Source of the DNA: Hyphomonadaceae bacterium
GTDB taxonomy: Bacteria > Pseudomonadota > Alphaproteobacteria > Caulobacterales > Hyphomonadaceae
Length of the DNA stretch: 59,625 bases
Assembly (NCBI GenBank): GCA_022760335.1
Contig: JALEGE010000101.1
Span: forward strand, 1 to 59,625
Direction: 5' to 3'
Positions 17,928 through 59,074 of this stretch are shown piece by piece. How positions within the stretch are numbered: the first letter of the stretch is position 1; each line of letters begins with the position of its first letter. The notes beneath the pieces were generated by a model that did not search any database, had not been told where the DNA came from, and was given only the letters and a program-made list of their open reading frames with translations. The translations under genes were made by a program, and so were the position numbers.

Positions 17928-18296
17928 TCACGCTTCCGGCAGGAAGCCGAGTTCCCGCTGTTTTTTCTTGCTGAAGCCCGCCGCGACAAGGGCGTGGCTG
18001 CCGGCGATGTAGGATTTCAGCTCGTCATCACTAAGCGTCTCGTCGCTGAACCATTGGATCCAGCTCATCCCGCGCGAGGCCAGATGCGGCGCGCCGCGCA
18101 GGCCGGCTTGGGTTTTCATGATCTCAAAGCTCATGGGGCTGACCTTGAAGGAACAGCGCGCAAGCGCCTCGCCCTCCAGCCCCCCAATCGCGTAGACCTT
18201 GCCGGCCACCTTCCAGACATGACTATCACCCCATTGTACCACATGGTGGCTGTGGGGCAGGGACTCGCAGAAGGAATTGTATTCTGTCAGCGTCAA
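17928..18296 (-). CDS. MmcQ/YjbR family protein (TTG start)
   Basis: 122 residues of the MmcQ/YjbR (DUF419) family: CESLPHSHHVVQWGDSHVWKV, KVYAIGG, CSFKVSP and the C-terminal SKKKQRELG. These are small CyaY-like DNA-binding-like domains of unknown role. The start is TTG 18296, placed 7 bases after GGAG; no ATG lies in frame upstream before the riboswitch. First gene behind the TPP riboswitch, so its initiation region is the probable switch output. Confidence 0.82.
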   Translation of the reverse strand: MTLTEYNSFCESLPHSHHVVQWGDSHVWKVAGKVYAIGGLEGEALARCSFKVSPMSFEIMKTQAGLRGAPHLASRGMSWIQWFSDETLSDDELKSYIAGSHALVAAGFSKKKQRELGFLPEA

Positions 18297-18305
18297 TTCT
18301 TCACT

Positions 18306-18395
18306 CCGTTCCTACGCCGGTTTGATCCGGATCAGGTTCAAAGGGTGCTCGCTCGGTGACAGAGCGATCTCAGCGCTTCCAGACGCGCCCCTCGG
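18306..18395 (-). ncRNA. TPP riboswitch (THI element)
   Basis: Read on the minus strand, the conserved THI blocks are present in order: GAGGGGCGC at the 5' end, GCTGAGAT, ACCCTTTGAACCTGATC, and CCGGCGTAGGAA at the 3' end closing helix P1. It ends about 10 bases before the Shine-Dalgarno and TTG start of the MmcQ-like gene. No terminator hairpin with a T-run is visible, so control is probably at translation start through occlusion of GGAG. Confidence 0.95.
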
Positions 18396-18529
18396 ATTTG
18401 TATTACCTTAGGAGATATTCGCGCGGCTTCCTAGGGGGCTTATCCGGCGCGCGTTTCGCGGCTTTCAAAGGCGGCAAAGATTGAAGCGCGTGCGCAATCA
18501 TTGGAAAAGAGTGGTGGGAGGAAATCGAG

Positions 18530-53282: not shown

Positions 53283-54215
53283 TTAAATCTTTTTCAGCAG
53301 CTGTTGAAGTGCGTCTGTTTCTGCACGGAACAGGAAGTCGACACTCTCTACACTGACAGGGCCCAAACCTGCCCGGCAGAGCTGTTCTGCAGCATAAGCT
53401 GCTGTGTTCCTTGGACAAAAAGCAACAGACTCCCGGAAATCGAGCAATCCCAAATTGATAGCGGTATCATTTGGAATCGCTCCGTAGGCGGTCAACTTCA
53501 CGAGTCGTTCAGCTTCTGCGCGAGCCTCCACACTGGCCATCAGGCGGGCAATGGCGGCGCGTGCCGATGCGCTCCAGTCTGCCCCCAAAGAAGCAACCAG
53601 AGCAGCCTGACTTTTCAGGATCAGGCCATCCTCCAGGATCTTCAATCCATTGGCCTTCAGTGTCGCGCCGGTCGTGGTGATGTCCACGATCAGGTCCGCC
53701 GTGCCGGAATTGGGCGCGGCCTCCGTTGCTCCGGCGCTCTCCACAAGACGATACTCGCCAACCGAGCGCGCGGCGAAAAACCGCCGTGTTGAGGCGAGAT
53801 ACTTGGTCGCCACGCGCAGGCGCCGGCCGTGCCGGGCGCGAAAGCGTGCGCCGGCCGCATCGAGATCGGCCATGGTCGAAACATCAACCCAGGCGCCTGG
53901 CACGGCCACCACCATATCCGCCTTTCCAAAACCCAGCTTGCGGATGATATGTGCCTGTGCATCCAGATCACTGGACAGGTCGTGCAGAAGATCCTCGCCC
54001 GTCACACCGACATGCAGCCGCCCGCTGAGCAGGCCCTCGGCGATCTCGCGCGCAGACAGCAGCAGGACATCCGTATCGGGCAGGCCGGAAAGTTCGGCCT
54101 GATAGCCCCGCTCGCCGCCAATCTGGCGCAGCCTGAAGCCACAGGCAGACAGCCAGGCCTCGGCCTGGTCCTTCAGACGCCCCTTGGAGGGGATTGCAAT
54201 CGTAAGCCGGCTCAT
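53283..54215 (-). CDS. hisG: ATP phosphoribosyltransferase catalytic subunit
   Basis: 310 residues. AIPSKGRLKDQAEAWL, VGVTGEDLLHDL, LRVATKYLASTRRFF and DLIVDITTTGATLKANGL are the HisG signatures; the last is the PRPP loop. It catalyses the first step of histidine synthesis. Short-form HisG that works with HisZ usually has about 220 residues; this one carries a C-terminal extension of about 90. Starts at ATG 54215, overlapping hisZ by 4 bases. Confidence 0.93.
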   Translation of the reverse strand: MSRLTIAIPSKGRLKDQAEAWLSACGFRLRQIGGERGYQAELSGLPDTDVLLLSAREIAEGLLSGRLHVGVTGEDLLHDLSSDLDAQAHIIRKLGFGKADMVVAVPGAWVDVSTMADLDAAGARFRARHGRRLRVATKYLASTRRFFAARSVGEYRLVESAGATEAAPNSGTADLIVDITTTGATLKANGLKILEDGLILKSQAALVASLGADWSASARAAIARLMASVEARAEAERLVKLTAYGAIPNDTAINLGLLDFRESVAFCPRNTAAYAAEQLCRAGLGPVSVESVDFLFRAETDALQQLLKKI

Positions 54216-55312
54216 TGGCGCGCCTCCCTGGCCTCTGCGAGGCGATCGGGGCGCACCACGCCGCCTATCGCGGTCATATCCATGGTTCCGCCACTGAGAT
54301 CGCGGATCAGCCCGTCATAGCGCCCGCCCGAGCCGAAGGGCCGGCGCGGATCACCATCTTGGGCGATCAACTCAAAGACAAAGCCGTCATAATAATTGAA
54401 ACGTCGCCCGAAAGGCGTCCCGAAGCGAGCCGATTTCAGGAAATCCGGCGCAAGGCGAGCCATGCCCGCAACCCGCGCGCTGAGGCGTTCCAGCACCGGG
54501 TCGACGCCATCAATTCCGGCCTGACGGGCTATGGCGAGCAAGGCGTCGGCGGCATTTTCCGGTGCGCACTCCACCGCCATCACCGCTTCCAGGGTCTGGC
54601 GAGCCAGCGCTGGGGCTTCCTCGTCTTCTTCCTCGGCAGCCTGGGCGAGCAGGCCTTCGACAATATCATCCAGGCTGCGCGCCCCCTGCATCTGTGTGCC
54701 CGCCAAAGCGAAGATTTCAGCGACAATGTCGCGGGCTTCGGTGAGGCTGGCGCCTTTCAGGCGTGCGGACAGCCCACTTGCGGGCGGCTTGTGGGCGCCA
54801 GACAGAAGTGCGCTGACTCCACCCGCCTGGCGGAATGCGCGTTTCAGGGCGTCGGCAAGGCCCTCCGGCAGGGTGAGCGCATCGACAAAGGCCGGAAAGA
54901 CGGCGAGGTCACCCATTCGCAGCATGCTGTCGGTGATGCCGGCAGAAGCGGCGGCCTCACAGACCAGAGCAAAGCTTTCCGCATCCACATCGGCAGTGGC
55001 GGGGGCGCCATAGCGCTCAAAGCCGATCTGAGTGAACTCCATCGGATCGCCCGGCACGCTGGGCAGGCGGAAAGCACGCGCGGCATACCGCTTGATGGTC
55101 TCATCGGCGGTGCCCGCCCCGGCCTGGGCGAGCGCCAACGGCAGGGTGAGATCAGGACGCAGTGCGCATTCCTCGCCATTGGCATCGGTGAACACGCACA
55201 GGCGCGCGCGCACGGCCTCGCCCGACAGCTCCAGCGGTTGGGCCGCTGGCATCAGGATGGGCGGGTCGACCAGCTCGCCGCCGAGTTTTGCGAAAATCTC
55301 AACGGGACTCAT
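54212..55312 (-). CDS. hisZ: ATP phosphoribosyltransferase regulatory subunit
   Basis: 366 residues, a histidyl-tRNA-synthetase-like protein without aminoacylation. LRPDLTLPLALAQAG and GDPMEFTQIGFERYG are the motif 2-like region; FNYYDGFVFELIAQDG and FGSGGRYDGLIRDL are the motif 3-like region. It activates HisG and gives histidine feedback. Overlaps hisS and hisG by 4 bases each (ATGA). Confidence 0.93.
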   Translation of the reverse strand: MSPVEIFAKLGGELVDPPILMPAAQPLELSGEAVRARLCVFTDANGEECALRPDLTLPLALAQAGAGTADETIKRYAARAFRLPSVPGDPMEFTQIGFERYGAPATADVDAESFALVCEAAASAGITDSMLRMGDLAVFPAFVDALTLPEGLADALKRAFRQAGGVSALLSGAHKPPASGLSARLKGASLTEARDIVAEIFALAGTQMQGARSLDDIVEGLLAQAAEEEDEEAPALARQTLEAVMAVECAPENAADALLAIARQAGIDGVDPVLERLSARVAGMARLAPDFLKSARFGTPFGRRFNYYDGFVFELIAQDGDPRRPFGSGGRYDGLIRDLSGGTMDMTAIGGVVRPDRLAEAREARQ

Positions 55313-56781
55313 TCCGCCGCCTCCACGATCTCTTTCAGTCGCGCGACCATGTCCGCGCGCGGCGCCTCGAATTGGCCGGGGCGAGCGGCGCGATATTCCT
55401 CATTGGACTTGATCGCTGCGGCCTCGGCCGCGCCAGCCTTCAGATCCTTGATGGTGACAACGCCCTTCTCGATCTCGTCCTCGCCGACGATCACCACAGC
55501 CGGCGCGCCGCGCCGGTCGGCATACTTCATCTGCGGTCGCATGCCCGAGCCGCCCATATAGGGCTCGGCGCGCAGCCCTGCCGCGCGTAGTTCGCTGGCG
55601 AGTTTCAAGGCCTCGCTCGGGTCTTCGCGGTTGAGATTGAGCACTACAATAGGCCCGCTGCGGGCGGTGAGATCCTGCTGCAGGGCGAAGGCCGTGACGA
55701 GCCGGCTGACGCCCACGCTCATGCCGGTGGCCGGCACGGACTGGCCCGTAAAACGCGCGATGAGATCATCATAGCGCCCGCCGCCGCCGACCGAGCCGAT
55801 GCGCACTGGATTGCCGTCTTCATCCTTGGTTTCGGTGAGCAACTCGGCCTCAAACACGGCGCCGGTATAATATTCCAGGCCCCTTACAATCGTTGGGTCG
55901 ATCAGCACATCGCTTTCCGGCACACCGAAGGCGGCAAGGCCGGATGTGATGGCCGTGAGTTCATCAAGACCGGCCTTACCCGCCTCGCTGCCGCCAGCGG
56001 CCTTTTCCAGATTGGCGAGTGTTTCCGCGCGCGTCCCGGCGCCCGCCTCGGCAAAGGCGAGGAGGCGTGTGCGGGCGCCTTCTTCAAGTCCGGCGCCCTT
56101 GGTAAAGTCGCCGCTTTCATCCAGCCGGCCTTCGCCGAGCAGGGCTTCCACGCCGTCCAGGCCAAGCCGGTCGAGCTTGTCGAGCGCGCGCAAAACCGTG
56201 AGCTTTGCCCCGCTATCGCTCACGCCAGCCTCGCTCAGCACGCCATCCAGCAGGCGGCGCGTATTCACCCGCACCACGAACTCTCCATCACCTGCCCCCG
56301 CCGCGCGCATGGCTTGGGCCGTCATGGCGATCATTTCCGCATCGGCATGGGCGCCCGGCGCGCCGACCGTGTCGGCATCGCACTGGGTGAACTGGCGAAA
56401 GCGCCCTGGCCCCGGCTTCTCATTGCGCCAGACCGGGCCATAGGCATAGCGGCGGAAAGGCTTGGCCAGCGTCTGCCAGTTCTCGGCGGCAAAGCGCGCC
56501 AGAGGTGCGGTGAGATCATAGCGCAGGGCGATCCACTGTTCGTCATCATCGGTGAGGGCAAAGACGCCTTCATTCGGGCGGTCAGTATCGGGCAGGAACT
56601 TGCCCAGCGCGTCGACATATTCGAACGCGCCGGTGTCGAGTGCTTCAAATCCCCAGCGCGCATACACCTCTGTGATACGCGTAATGATCTCGGCTTCGGC
56701 GCGAAGGAGGCTCTCGCGATGGTCAGGGAAGCCGCGCGGTTTGCGGGCGAGATCCTTGCCGGTTTTCGGCGTGTCGGTCAT
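55309..56781 (-). CDS. hisS: Histidine-tRNA ligase
   Basis: 490 residues, class II synthetase. ALRYDLTAPLARFAAEN, RRYAYGPVWRNEKPGPGRFRQ (motif 2), RGLEYYTGAVFEAE (HisA motif) and GGGRYDDLIARF (motif 3), then a C-terminal anticodon domain (VVLNLNREDPSEALK). Being upstream of hisZ and hisG, it puts tRNA charging and histidine synthesis under one control. ATG 56781 starts the similarity. Confidence 0.95.
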   Translation of the reverse strand: MTDTPKTGKDLARKPRGFPDHRESLLRAEAEIITRITEVYARWGFEALDTGAFEYVDALGKFLPDTDRPNEGVFALTDDDEQWIALRYDLTAPLARFAAENWQTLAKPFRRYAYGPVWRNEKPGPGRFRQFTQCDADTVGAPGAHADAEMIAMTAQAMRAAGAGDGEFVVRVNTRRLLDGVLSEAGVSDSGAKLTVLRALDKLDRLGLDGVEALLGEGRLDESGDFTKGAGLEEGARTRLLAFAEAGAGTRAETLANLEKAAGGSEAGKAGLDELTAITSGLAAFGVPESDVLIDPTIVRGLEYYTGAVFEAELLTETKDEDGNPVRIGSVGGGGRYDDLIARFTGQSVPATGMSVGVSRLVTAFALQQDLTARSGPIVVLNLNREDPSEALKLASELRAAGLRAEPYMGGSGMRPQMKYADRRGAPAVVIVGEDEIEKGVVTIKDLKAGAAEAAAIKSNEEYRAARPGQFEAPRADMVARLKEIVEAAE

Positions 56782-56927
56782 GGCATCGGCCTTTTCAGCG
56801 TTCGGGCACCGCATAGACGATGCGCCGGGGGGTGTGAAGTCTGGATGCCGGGGCTGGATTTAAGCCAGCATTGGCCGGTCCAAAACCGGCTGCCTTAGCC
56901 TTAGACGACCCGGCATGGGTCTTGGCA

Positions 56928-57006
56928 GGCGTGCAATGCTTGAAATGTCCGGGGGGAGAACTTTCGCAAGGCACGCCTTCAGCGGTCGCGCCTTGTTGCG
57001 GGCGCG
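56928..57006 (-). promoter_or_regulatory. Histidine attenuator hairpin region
   Basis: After the leader peptide the minus strand can fold in mutually exclusive ways. Segment 1 (57001-57006) pairs with segment 2 (56987-56992). CAAGGC of segment 2 (56990-56995) pairs with GCCTTG of segment 3 (56967-56972). GGCGTGC of segment 3 (56971-56977) pairs with GCACGCC of segment 4 (56928-56934). No clear T-run follows segment 4, so the output may be Rho-dependent or translational. Confidence 0.65.
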
Positions 57007-57042
57007 TCAGCTGTGGTGGTGATGGTGCTGTTGCGTGTTCAT
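57007..57042 (-). CDS. hisL: Histidine leader peptide
   Basis: An 11-residue open frame encodes MNTQQHHHHHS, five consecutive His codons (CAC CAT CAC CAC CAC) followed by Ser and TGA. It lies 225 bases before hisS in the same direction and directly precedes alternative hairpins. This is the hallmark of ribosome-mediated attenuation by histidyl-tRNA. The promoter's -10 ends only 6 bases before the ATG, so the peptide is probably read from a leaderless 5' end, as known for trpL in Sinorhizobium. Confidence 0.9.
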   Translation of the reverse strand: MNTQQHHHHHS

Positions 57043-57048
57043 GGGCGC

Positions 57049-57077
57049 GAGATATGCCGTGCAGCGAATGGCGTCAA
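57049..57077 (-). promoter_or_regulatory. Promoter of hisL-hisSZG
   Basis: Minus-strand TTGACG (57072-57077) and TATCTC (57049-57054) are 17 bases apart. Predicted start is at about 57042, the A of the leader ATG. The remaining gap to 57215 shows nothing further. Confidence 0.7.
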
Positions 57078-57215
57078 GTTTTTCGACCCTGCCATGAGCC
57101 TGCTCTTCTCAGAAAGCATCTCACCGCAGACACACTCGCTAATAAGACGGAACTGTACACTAAAGCGGGGATCCATAGGGCGGTGTAACAATCGGGAGCG
57201 TTGGCTGTCGGATTT

Positions 57216-57252
57216 GTCCATGGATTCCTGCTTTCGCAGGAATTCACGAATA
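57216..57252 (+). repeat. Palindromic repeat family B, copy 1
   Basis: GTCCATGG followed by stem ATTCCTGC/GCAGGAAT around loop TTTC, then TCACGAATAT. Similar copies at 58957-58997 (reverse) and 59034-59074 keep the same layout with changed but still paired stem bases. Confidence 0.85.
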
Positions 57253-57815: not shown

Positions 57816-58793
57816 TCACCAGCTCCAGCCGCGGTCTCCCCGGCCATCCACACGGCGGATCGAGGAGATATTGTCATTCAGGCCTATATCTCGCGTGGAA
57901 CCGATGGAGCGGTCAATGATCCGGCAGCGGCCGCGATAATCAGGATCGGAACAGATCTCCCAGCGGCCGGAGTTTACCCGGATGGAGGAGATATTGTCAT
58001 TGAAGCCACGTGCCCTCAGCTCTCTCAGCGAGCTATTCACTGTCATGGAACGGCCACGGCCATTGGGGTCGACAAACACTACGATCCCGGCACCGCCATA
58101 GCCGGCATTGCCCCAATCTCGGTTTCCCCAGTCCCGATTGTTGCCCCAACCACGACCATTATTGCCATAGCGGCGCGCCTCCTGGTCGCTGATCGGGCGC
58201 AGGGAGCTGATCCGGTCATTCAGGCCATGGCGCGGGAAACCAGCCTGGTCGCTGCGGATCACGGCGCAATTGCCGCGATAGTCCGGATCGGTACAGACCA
58301 GCCAGGTGCCATTGCGCACGCGAATGGAGGACACCTCATCATTCAGTCCGGTGTGACGGATACTGCGCTGTGCGCCGTTAAGAGCATAATTCCTTCCGCG
58401 ATAGCCGGGGTCAGCATAAAGGATGATGGCGCCGCGATTGCCGTAGCGGTTACCGGAACGCCAGTCATTGTCGCGGTGGTCCCGGTCGCGCCAATCATGG
58501 TTGCGGTTGCGGTCGCGGTCATTGTGATCCCGGTCCCGGTCGCGCCAGTCATGATGGTCATCATCCCGATCCCAGTCGCGGTCGTGATGATCGCGGTCAC
58601 GGTCCCGGTCGGCATTGCGCTGGCCATTGTGAAAGGTAATGGTGGGCGAACCGCCCAACAGGTTACCAACAGTGATCTGCGCTGCAGCGGCCTGGCGGCG
58701 GCTGGCATCCTCGCCGTCGGCCAGGGCCGGCGCGGTAAAAACAAGGGCGGCGGTCGCCGTAGCGGCCAGCCGCGAGAGCCATTTGAGGTCCAT
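57816..58793 (-). CDS. Secreted protein with two beta/gamma-crystallin domains
   Basis: 325 residues. Signal peptide with cleavage after APALA (about 25). Residues 60-115 are a low-complexity Arg/Asp/His stretch of RD repeats. Two double-Greek-key domains follow (about 121-200 and 235-315), each with two motifs containing the calcium-binding pattern NDxxSS: NDEVSS, NDRISS, NDNISS, NDNISS. Asp-Pro-Asp/Gly-Tyr-Arg-Gly starts the strands. Probably a periplasmic or surface calcium binder. It sits between rpsP and rimM, normally neighbours. Start ATG 58793 begins the signal. Confidence 0.85.
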   Translation of the reverse strand: MDLKWLSRLAATATAALVFTAPALADGEDASRRQAAAAQITVGNLLGGSPTITFHNGQRNADRDRDRDHHDRDWDRDDDHHDWRDRDRDHNDRDRNRNHDWRDRDHRDNDWRSGNRYGNRGAIILYADPGYRGRNYALNGAQRSIRHTGLNDEVSSIRVRNGTWLVCTDPDYRGNCAVIRSDQAGFPRHGLNDRISSLRPISDQEARRYGNNGRGWGNNRDWGNRDWGNAGYGGAGIVVFVDPNGRGRSMTVNSSLRELRARGFNDNISSIRVNSGRWEICSDPDYRGRCRIIDRSIGSTRDIGLNDNISSIRRVDGRGDRGWSW

Positions 58794-58956
58794 GCGGGGT
58801 CTCCTTACCAGTAGCATGGAAGGAGCATCGCATGGGGGGCCTGAATGTGATTTCATCGCCACATTCAGGCCCAGTTTAGCTTCTGTTCAGGTTGGGGTGG
58901 GGCCATTTTTGCCCGTAACTGACAACTCGCATGAAATTCAGAAGCACGCGGCAACA

Positions 58957-58997
58957 TAGAAATCCGTAAATGCCTGCGCAGGCAGGCATCCATGGAC
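58957..58997 (-). repeat. Palindromic repeat family B, copy 2 (reverse)
   Basis: On the minus strand: GTCCATGG (58990-58997), stem ATGCCTGC (58982-58989) / GCAGGCAT (58970-58977) with loop CTGC, then TTACGGATTT. Same layout as copies 1 and 3. Confidence 0.8.
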
Positions 58998-59033
58998 GAA
59001 AGATGCAATCAGGAGTTCCCGGTTGATGGAATG

Positions 59034-59074
59034 GTCCATGGATCCCCGCTTTCGCGGGGATTCGCGGATATGGT
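59034..59074 (+). repeat. Palindromic repeat family B, copy 3
   Basis: GTCCATGG (59034-59041), stem ATCCCCGC (59042-59049)/GCGGGGAT (59054-59061), loop TTTC, then TCGCGGATATGG. It faces copy 2 in head-to-head orientation about 36 bases away. Confidence 0.85.

What the first reader, a model, noticed from the sequence alone, without database searches (positions are those of the whole stretch)
57007..57077. Leaderless five-histidine leader peptide controls hisS-hisZ-hisG
Seen: an 11-residue frame with five consecutive His codons, a TTGACG-17-TATCTC promoter whose start falls on the ATG itself, and alternative hairpins. Known: his operon attenuation uses such leaders, and leaderless trpL occurs in rhizobia. 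Here the regulated genes include histidyl-tRNA synthetase itself, so charging and synthesis rise together.
Basis: partly seen in the sequence, partly recalled or inferred. Interest (0 to 1): 0.75.

Follow-up and report, generated by a model that had tools for sequence, protein, structure and literature searches.

The report
Histidine leader peptide ahead of hisS
Just ahead of the gene for the enzyme that loads histidine onto its tRNA, this alphaproteobacterium and most of its relatives carry a tiny histidine-rich peptide gene, apparently translated from the very first base of the RNA, that very likely senses histidine shortage; in a few relatives a glutamine tRNA gene is built into the same control region.

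Summary
On the minus strand 57042-57007 encodes MNTQQHHHHHS, the only run of five His codons in the 3.5 Mb genome. TTGACG-17-TATCTC puts the predicted start on the A of the ATG. Of 90 hisS upstream regions fetched from the family (Hyphomonadaceae), 63 carry a His leader, all with TTGAC 35-39 nt before the ATG. Caulobacter and Phenylobacterium have another version. After the stop codon, segments pair 1:2, 2:3 or 3:4; most relatives also pair the leader's start codon with a sequence behind segment 3, with covariation; the window has lost most of that. hisS-hisZ-hisG overlap as an operon. His sensing by a near-leaderless leader is well supported; how the switch acts on hisS is not: no U-tract terminator follows, and a probable second promoter lies behind the switch. 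The window's copy is damaged in its T loop.

The parts
57049..57077 (-). Promoter P1, TTGACG (57077-57072), 17 nt, TATCTC (57054-57049); predicted start at 57042, the A of the leader ATG
   Evidence: Sequence; TTGAC 35-39 nt before the leader ATG in 63 of 63 leaders
57007..57042 (-). Leader peptide MNTQQHHHHHS, five His codons and two Gln codons
   Evidence: Sequence; 63 of 90 relatives carry a His leader here; covariance model finds 64 of 105 family genomes
57001..57006 (-). Segment 1, CGCGCC, directly after the stop codon
   Evidence: 1:2 helix paired in 99.6% of cells in 45 aligned leaders
56987..56994 (-). Segment 2, AAGGCGCG, pairs with segment 1 or segment 3
   Evidence: 2:3 helix paired in 98.7% of cells; folds
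56968..56978 (-). Segment 3, AGGCGUGCCUU, pairs with segment 2 or segment 4
   Evidence: Folds of growing transcript
56958..56961 (-). GUUC, remnant of the sequence that pairs with the leader start codon region in relatives (only 4 pairs left here)
   Evidence: Run of 6 or more pairs in 58 of 63 relatives; the window is among the 5 exceptions
56927..56934 (-). Segment 4, GCACGCCU, pairs with segment 3
   Evidence: corresponding helix 83% paired in 45 relatives
56842..56915 (-). tRNA-Gln(UUG)-like gene with encoded CCA, T loop CTTAAAT instead of TTCGAAT (degenerate)
   Evidence: ARAGORN, Rfam tRNA 47.2 bits; seven-sequence alignment and pair counts
56810..56838 (-). Probable second promoter P2, TTCACA (56838-56833), 17 nt, TATGCG (56815-56810); could also be read as a small hairpin
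   Evidence: Spacing from CTT to the TA box constant (23) in 58 of 63 leader loci by script
55309..56781 (-). hisS, histidine-tRNA ligase
   Evidence: TIGR00442 368.5 bits, cut-off 286.75
54212..55312 (-). hisZ, ATP phosphoribosyltransferase regulatory subunit; overlaps hisS by 4 bases
   Evidence: Best NCBIfam hits all named ATP-PRT regulatory subunit, below curated cut-offs; coordinates
53283..54215 (-). hisG, ATP phosphoribosyltransferase; overlaps hisZ by 4 bases
   Evidence: TIGR00070 162.3 bits, cut-off 75.75

Best explanation
A leaderless or near-leaderless mRNA starts at P1 on the ATG of an 11-codon His leader. When charged tRNA-His is plentiful the ribosome runs to the stop codon and covers segment 1, so segments 2:3 pair. 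When tRNA-His is uncharged it stalls on the first His codons, segment 1 is free, and 1:2 plus 3:4 form. The second state lets the P1 transcript reach hisS-hisZ-hisG, so the charging enzyme and the first enzyme of His synthesis rise together. A second promoter downstream of the switch keeps a basal supply of the essential hisS. Shown by sequence and comparison: the leader, its conservation, the promoter geometry, the mutually exclusive pairings, the gene order. Inferred: the start site, the stalling, which state is 'on', and P2. Unresolved: what the off-state does (Rho-dependent termination seems likeliest to me, because no U-tract is present; not tested). The embedded tRNA-Gln gene is an accessory part of this leader in some lineages and is decaying in the window's genome.
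For: Only 5-His run in the genome. His leader in 63 of 90 hisS upstream regions of the family and in 64 of 105 genomes by covariance model, and a different His-rich leader in 20 of the 80 named loci, all of Caulobacteraceae type. TTGAC 35-39 nt before the ATG in 63 of 63, with a TA box 17 nt on. Segment 1 follows the stop codon immediately, so a ribosome at the stop should cover it. 1:2 paired in 99.6% and 2:3 in 98.7% of cells of 45 aligned leaders. Consensus folds of the Henriciella set switch between 2:3 and 1:2+3:4 according to whether segment 1 is available. Start-codon helix: 58 of 63 with 6 or more contiguous pairs, shuffled regions mean 4.8, maximum 12 of 63; MNT-type starts pair poorly with MKT-type regions and the reverse.
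Against: No mapped 5' end, no expression data. No intrinsic terminator on this strand; T-run of 4 after 2:3 in only 10 of 63. In the window 3:4 is more stable than 2:3 even with segment 1 covered, once segment 4 has been transcribed, so the switch would have to be kinetic. Shuffle controls on the 45-leader alignment gave no significant covariation for 1:2, 2:3 and 3:4, whose columns hardly vary. In the MKT subgroup the consensus fold gave 2:3 whether or not segment 1 was present. The window is the weakest of the clear members (64.8 bits; other clear matches 67-110) and has lost most of the start-codon helix. 27 of 90 relatives have no such leader.
Confidence: 0.72

Rival explanations
1. Translational rather than transcriptional control: the leader decides whether the hisS start region is open, as an RNA switch without termination.
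For: No terminator in the window. In Caulobacteraceae the chain of alternative hairpins ends close to the hisS start (CCGTCG facing CGACG just before the start in several loci, read by eye).
Against: In Hyphomonadaceae the switch lies well over 100 nt before hisS with a tRNA (some) and a probable promoter in between, and I saw no pairing to the hisS ribosome-binding site.
Confidence: 0.2
2. The P1 RNA is mainly a separate small RNA (like rnTrpL of Sinorhizobium) that ends at the switch, and hisS is expressed from P2 alone.
For: P2-like boxes with constant spacing before hisS; in relatives the 5' and 3' parts of the leader RNA pair with each other, which would stabilise a released RNA; rnTrpL precedent (PMC7298713, passages read).
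Against: The His leader stands before hisS wherever I had located hisS, which is unexplained if hisS is not a target.
Confidence: 0.12
3. The His run is a metal-binding or otherwise functional micropeptide and not a codon sensor.
For: A block of His residues is conserved as a peptide.
Against: The peptide around the run is not conserved, the second clade has a wholly different peptide with split His runs, and the run sits before hisS and a switch-like RNA.
Confidence: 0.03
4. On the embedded tRNA-Gln only: it is a stray, phage-like tRNA gene that landed in the spacer and is decaying; its link to Gln codons is chance plus shared ancestry.
For: Viral contigs carry tRNA-Gln genes with the same first 18 bases; an intact copy in few genomes, damaged in the window and remnant-like in L029 and L046; only 3 changes of each trait on the hisS tree, too few for a test; all ten genomes checked also have a canonical tRNA-Gln.
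Against: Four of five anticodon-stem pairs changed on both sides among seven sequences (0 of 500 shuffles reach the covariation score); all 7 tRNA-bearing leaders hold Gln codons against 2 of 56 others.
Confidence: 0.6

Closest known systems
Histidine leader peptides and His attenuators (his operon of enterobacteria, Rfam RF00514; Bacillus hisS*/hisZ leaders, PMC2965389, section on hisS read in full; Firmicutes his leaders, PMC9413887, passages read)
   Same: Short ORF with a run of His codons, alternative hairpins after it, His genes downstream; in Bacillus also before a hisS paralogue and hisZ.
   Different: [quoted passage not shown] no U-tract terminator in the window; no match to RF00514; stands before the only hisS found, in one operon with hisZ and hisG.
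uORFC-8-2, Cys leader before cysS in Rhodobacterales (PMC8632094, that section read in full)
   Same: Alphaproteobacterial leader peptide attenuator of an aminoacyl-tRNA synthetase gene.
   Different: Cys codons at positions 14-15, U run consistent with an intrinsic terminator in all cases, order Rhodobacterales.
Leaderless trpL attenuator of Sinorhizobium meliloti (PMC7298713, passages read)
   Same: RNA that begins with the ATG of a leader peptide gene; attenuation.
   Different: Trp codons, trpE(G), terminator releasing the sRNA rnTrpL; no tRNA gene inside mentioned.
Escherichia coli pheST (Phe leader) and metY-nusA (tRNA gene at the head of an mRNA), both recalled, no call
   Same: Leader peptide control of a synthetase operon; tRNA in an mRNA leader.
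   Different: Not both in one leader, as far as I recall.
Caulobacter sRNA CC3513, Rfam RF01528
   Same: Covers the Caulobacter version of this hisS leader.
   Different: Rfam places it on the opposite strand; its relation to the leader is unknown to me.

Membership tests
Ribosome-mediated His transcription attenuator | Short leader ORF with run of His codons before His genes | tested here: met
Ribosome-mediated His transcription attenuator | Mutually exclusive hairpins, one of which needs the sequence a ribosome at the stop codon covers | tested here: met
   covariation not demonstrable because columns are nearly invariant
Ribosome-mediated His transcription attenuator | Intrinsic terminator (GC hairpin plus U tract) between leader and first gene | tested here: not met
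   None on this strand; T-run of 4 after 2:3 in only 10 of 63 relatives, not in the window. So it is not filed as a classical member
Ribosome-mediated His transcription attenuator | Expression responds to charging of tRNA-His | not testable with these tools
   No expression data
Rfam His leader RF00514 | Match to the covariance model | tested here: not met
   No hit in window at gathering or in six loci up to E 0.5
T-box leader | Match to T-box model | tested here: not met
   Only TPP and tRNA found in the window
Leaderless leader-peptide mRNA (trpL type) | Transcript begins at the start codon | tested here: inconclusive
   Predicted from promoter spacing, 35 nt in the window and 35-39 nt in 63 of 63; 5' end not mapped
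Functional tRNA-Gln gene | Cloverleaf, UUG anticodon, encoded CCA | tested here: met
Functional tRNA-Gln gene | Canonical T loop (TTCRA...) | tested here: not met
   Window has CTTAAAT; the other six sequences have TTCGA. So the window's copy is filed as degenerate

The most novel reading that the evidence does not exclude
The tRNA-Gln encoded inside the leader transcript reads the Gln codons of that same transcript's leader peptide, closing a small feedback loop: readthrough makes more of this tRNA, which speeds later ribosomes across the leader. The leader would then weigh His and Gln together (Gln is the nitrogen donor in His synthesis, recalled), and relatives without an intact tRNA show PK where tRNA-bearing relatives show QQ (L029, L034, L036).
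Probability: 0.1. Interest if true: 0.85.

Novelty: new variant of a known kind. Interest (0 to 1): 0.52.

Why it matters
It adds an apparently undescribed aminoacyl-tRNA synthetase control element, present across much of Hyphomonadaceae and, in another form, in Caulobacteraceae including relatives of the model Caulobacter crescentus, where published start-site and ribosome data could test it directly. It would be a leaderless leader peptide that couples tRNA charging with synthesis of the same amino acid. An embedded tRNA-Gln together with Gln codons in the peptide has no precedent that I know of. My nine literature searches showed no paper on a hisS leader in these groups; that library lacks most subscription journals, so an earlier description (for example in comparative-genomics work on proteobacterial attenuators that I recall from 2004) is not excluded.

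Tried and rejected
A long-range helix between the 2:3 loop and a downstream CCGGU segment looked convincing by eye and in one consensus fold, but only 4 of 63 loci beat 90% of shuffles and the alignment pairs only 55% of cells: rejected.

The inner GUUC/GAAC hairpin is visible in most loci but is misaligned between clades (71% of cells): left as unproven.

Intrinsic terminator at 2:3 or 3:4: not supported.

The idea that the embedded tRNA is the only tRNA-Gln of these genomes: wrong, the canonical UGGGG-type tRNA-Gln(UUG) was read by ARAGORN in all ten genomes searched.

Independent-contrast test of tRNA against Gln codons: 3 changes each, no significance possible. The naive Fisher p of 6.5e-8 ignores shared ancestry.

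Phage and plasmid origin of the tRNA: phages give tRNA-Gln genes, mostly at 73-77% identity, plasmids nothing useful, viral contigs 14 stretches with the same first-18-bases pattern, 12 of them read as tRNA-Gln by ARAGORN; direction of transfer unknown.

Rows dropped: L080 and L092 (chance ORFs) before the 63-leader counts; six genomes with a hisS match were not fetched (G004, G017, G030, G053, G056, G059), so 90 of 96; 45 of 63 leaders went into alignment A2, 28 of 63 into A3; L030 and L098 were left out of the tree for short hisS; L058 is identical to L057 over the aligned stretch. In one search one further hit, L173, was taken as a chance ORF.

Full report
What is there. Reading the minus strand from 57077: TTGACG, 17 bases, TATCTC, six bases, then ATG at 57042. 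The ORF is ATG AAC ACG CAA CAG CAC CAT CAC CAC CAC AGC TGA, ending at 57007. Five His codons in a row occur nowhere else in the 3.5 Mb genome (in the window 1 found, 0.01 expected). Downstream come hisS (56781-55309), hisZ and hisG, each overlapping the next by four bases. hisZ is named from the best NCBIfam hits, which stay under their curated cut-offs.

Conservation. A protein search found hisS in 96 of 101 genomes of the family. I fetched 90 upstream regions. 63 hold a short ORF with two or more His codons at the same place, typically MNTxLHHHHHHA (two chance ORFs, L080 and L092, were dropped from 65). The other 27 lack it; they are mostly other genera (g2, g3, g5, g7, g9, g10) plus three genomes of g6. 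A covariance model of the leader (R2) finds 64 of 105 family genomes; the strong match lies at the hisS leader wherever I had located hisS. Across the class it finds 3 of 385 genomes, two of them in the family and one weak. Names come from a second search: Henriciella and Hyphomonas carry this version; Caulobacter, Phenylobacterium and other Caulobacteraceae carry a different one, such as MTRTPHHHGHHHHPTSPRGIGRVRTL, with its own hairpins (20 of the 80 named loci). The rhizobial loci in the same list showed none.

Promoter and start. In all 63 leaders TTGAC stands 35-39 nt before the A of the ATG (37 of 63 at exactly 37; the window at 35), and a TA box, most often TATCCG or TATCGG, lies 17 nt after the -35 hexamer. 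With usual sigma-70 spacing the RNA starts on the ATG or up to about four bases before it. In Caulobacteraceae the CTA of the -10 lies 14-17 nt before the ATG in 17 of 20. This is strong indirect evidence for leaderless or near-leaderless translation, common in this class (375 leaderless mRNAs in C. crescentus, PMC4117421, passages read). It is still a prediction.

The switch. After the stop codon the consensus in the family is CGCGCC (1), GAGGCGCG (2), GCGCCUC (3), GUGUUCAU, then GAGGC (4). 1:2 and 2:3 are paired in 99.6% and 98.7% of cells in 45 aligned leaders, 3:4 in 83%. Because these columns hardly vary, shuffle controls show no covariation for them; I rest on conservation and exclusivity. 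RNAalifold on the 14 Henriciella-type leaders gives the start-codon helix plus 2:3 for the full leader, 1:2 plus 3:4 when segment 1 is free, and 2:3 when segment 1 is covered; the MKT subgroup gave 2:3 in both truncated cases. In the window the growing chain forms 2:3 first and changes to 1:2 plus 3:4 when segment 4 appears; with segment 1 covered, 3:4 still wins in the end. So the window's switch would depend on timing.

Start-codon helix. In relatives the first eight bases AUGAACAC face GUGUUCAU behind segment 3; where the leader begins AUGAAAAC the partner is GUUUUCAU. 58 of 63 have six or more pairs in a row; shuffled partner regions reach that in a mean of 4.8 and at most 12 of 63. MNT starts against MKT regions give runs of 4-5 only (10 of 10), and MKT starts against MNT regions reach 6 in 2 of 38 and 5 or fewer in the rest. 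This pairing would shut the start codon of a leaderless mRNA and is not part of any attenuator I know. The window, with four pairs, is an exception.

What turns hisS on or off is open. No intrinsic terminator exists on this strand of the window, and only 10 of 63 have a run of four U shortly after 2:3. I think Rho-dependent termination likeliest, but nothing here tests it. A second pair of boxes just before hisS, TTCACA-17-TATGCG in the window, keeps constant spacing in 58 of 63 leader loci by script. I read it as a basal promoter; a small hairpin around its -10 is the alternative.

The embedded tRNA. ARAGORN and Rfam both call a tRNA-Gln(UUG) at 56842-56915 between leader and hisS. It scores second-lowest of 39 tRNA matches in the genome; its T loop is CTTAAAT. 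The copy in the sister genome G008 is canonical. A model of this tRNA finds it in 7 of 105 family genomes, once each, always at the hisS leader. The seven sequences keep acceptor and T-arm stems unchanged while four of five anticodon-stem pairs have changed on both sides (0 of 500 shuffles reach the covariation score), so it has been under selection as a tRNA-shaped RNA. The ten genomes checked also have an ordinary tRNA-Gln of a different type. The embedded type resembles tRNA-Gln genes, mostly CUG, of other alphaproteobacteria and some phage tRNAs.

Gln codons. All seven leaders with this tRNA contain Gln codons next to the His run (MNTQQHHHHHS, MNTQQHHHHQHS, MKTRLHHHHQQT and the like, MKTITHHHHQHM); of 56 others two do, one of which (L046) has a decayed tRNA. 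L029, with only an acceptor-stem remnant, and L034 and L036, with none that I can see, read PK where the relatives read QQ. On the hisS tree each trait changes three times, so shared ancestry cannot be ruled out.

Comparison. Leader-peptide control of synthetase genes is known, including cysS in Rhodobacterales (PMC8632094) and His leaders before a hisS paralogue and hisZ in Bacillus (PMC2965389). A leaderless attenuator is known for trpL (PMC7298713). The combination here is a new variant. Rfam showed no family on the leader strand in the loci searched; its CC3513 family lies on the opposite strand of the Caulobacter leader.

Verdict. Observation confirmed; His sensing by a near-leaderless leader is well supported by comparison; classical termination is not shown; the embedded tRNA-Gln is the most unusual part and is of uncertain function.

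Noticed in passing
window 56842-56915 (-): tRNA-Gln(UUG)-like gene with degenerate T loop inside the hisS leader; canonical T loop in the sister genome and five others.
   Followed up: yes
L123 2283-2445 (-): Rfam sRNA family CC3513 (106 bits) lies antisense over the Caulobacter hisS leader; either an antisense RNA or a strand assignment worth checking.
   Followed up: partly
window 56810-56838 (-): Boxes TTCACA-17-TATGCG before hisS with spacing constant in relatives, also part of a small dyad around the -10.
   Followed up: partly
window 18292-18402 (-): TPP riboswitch, 71.8 bits.
   Followed up: no
window 57816-58862 (-): Protein between rpsP and rimM with a long Asp/Arg/His-rich stretch; no NCBIfam family at E 0.001.
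   Followed up: no
window 57215-57250 and 58970-59070: Similar palindromic stretches (CCTGCTTTCGCAGG, CCCCGCTTTCGCGGGG) that look like dispersed intergenic repeats.
   Followed up: no
L025-L028, L031 (leader transcripts): Leader peptides with the embedded tRNA carry CAA/CAG codons at the end of the His run, in parallel with the window genus.
   Followed up: yes
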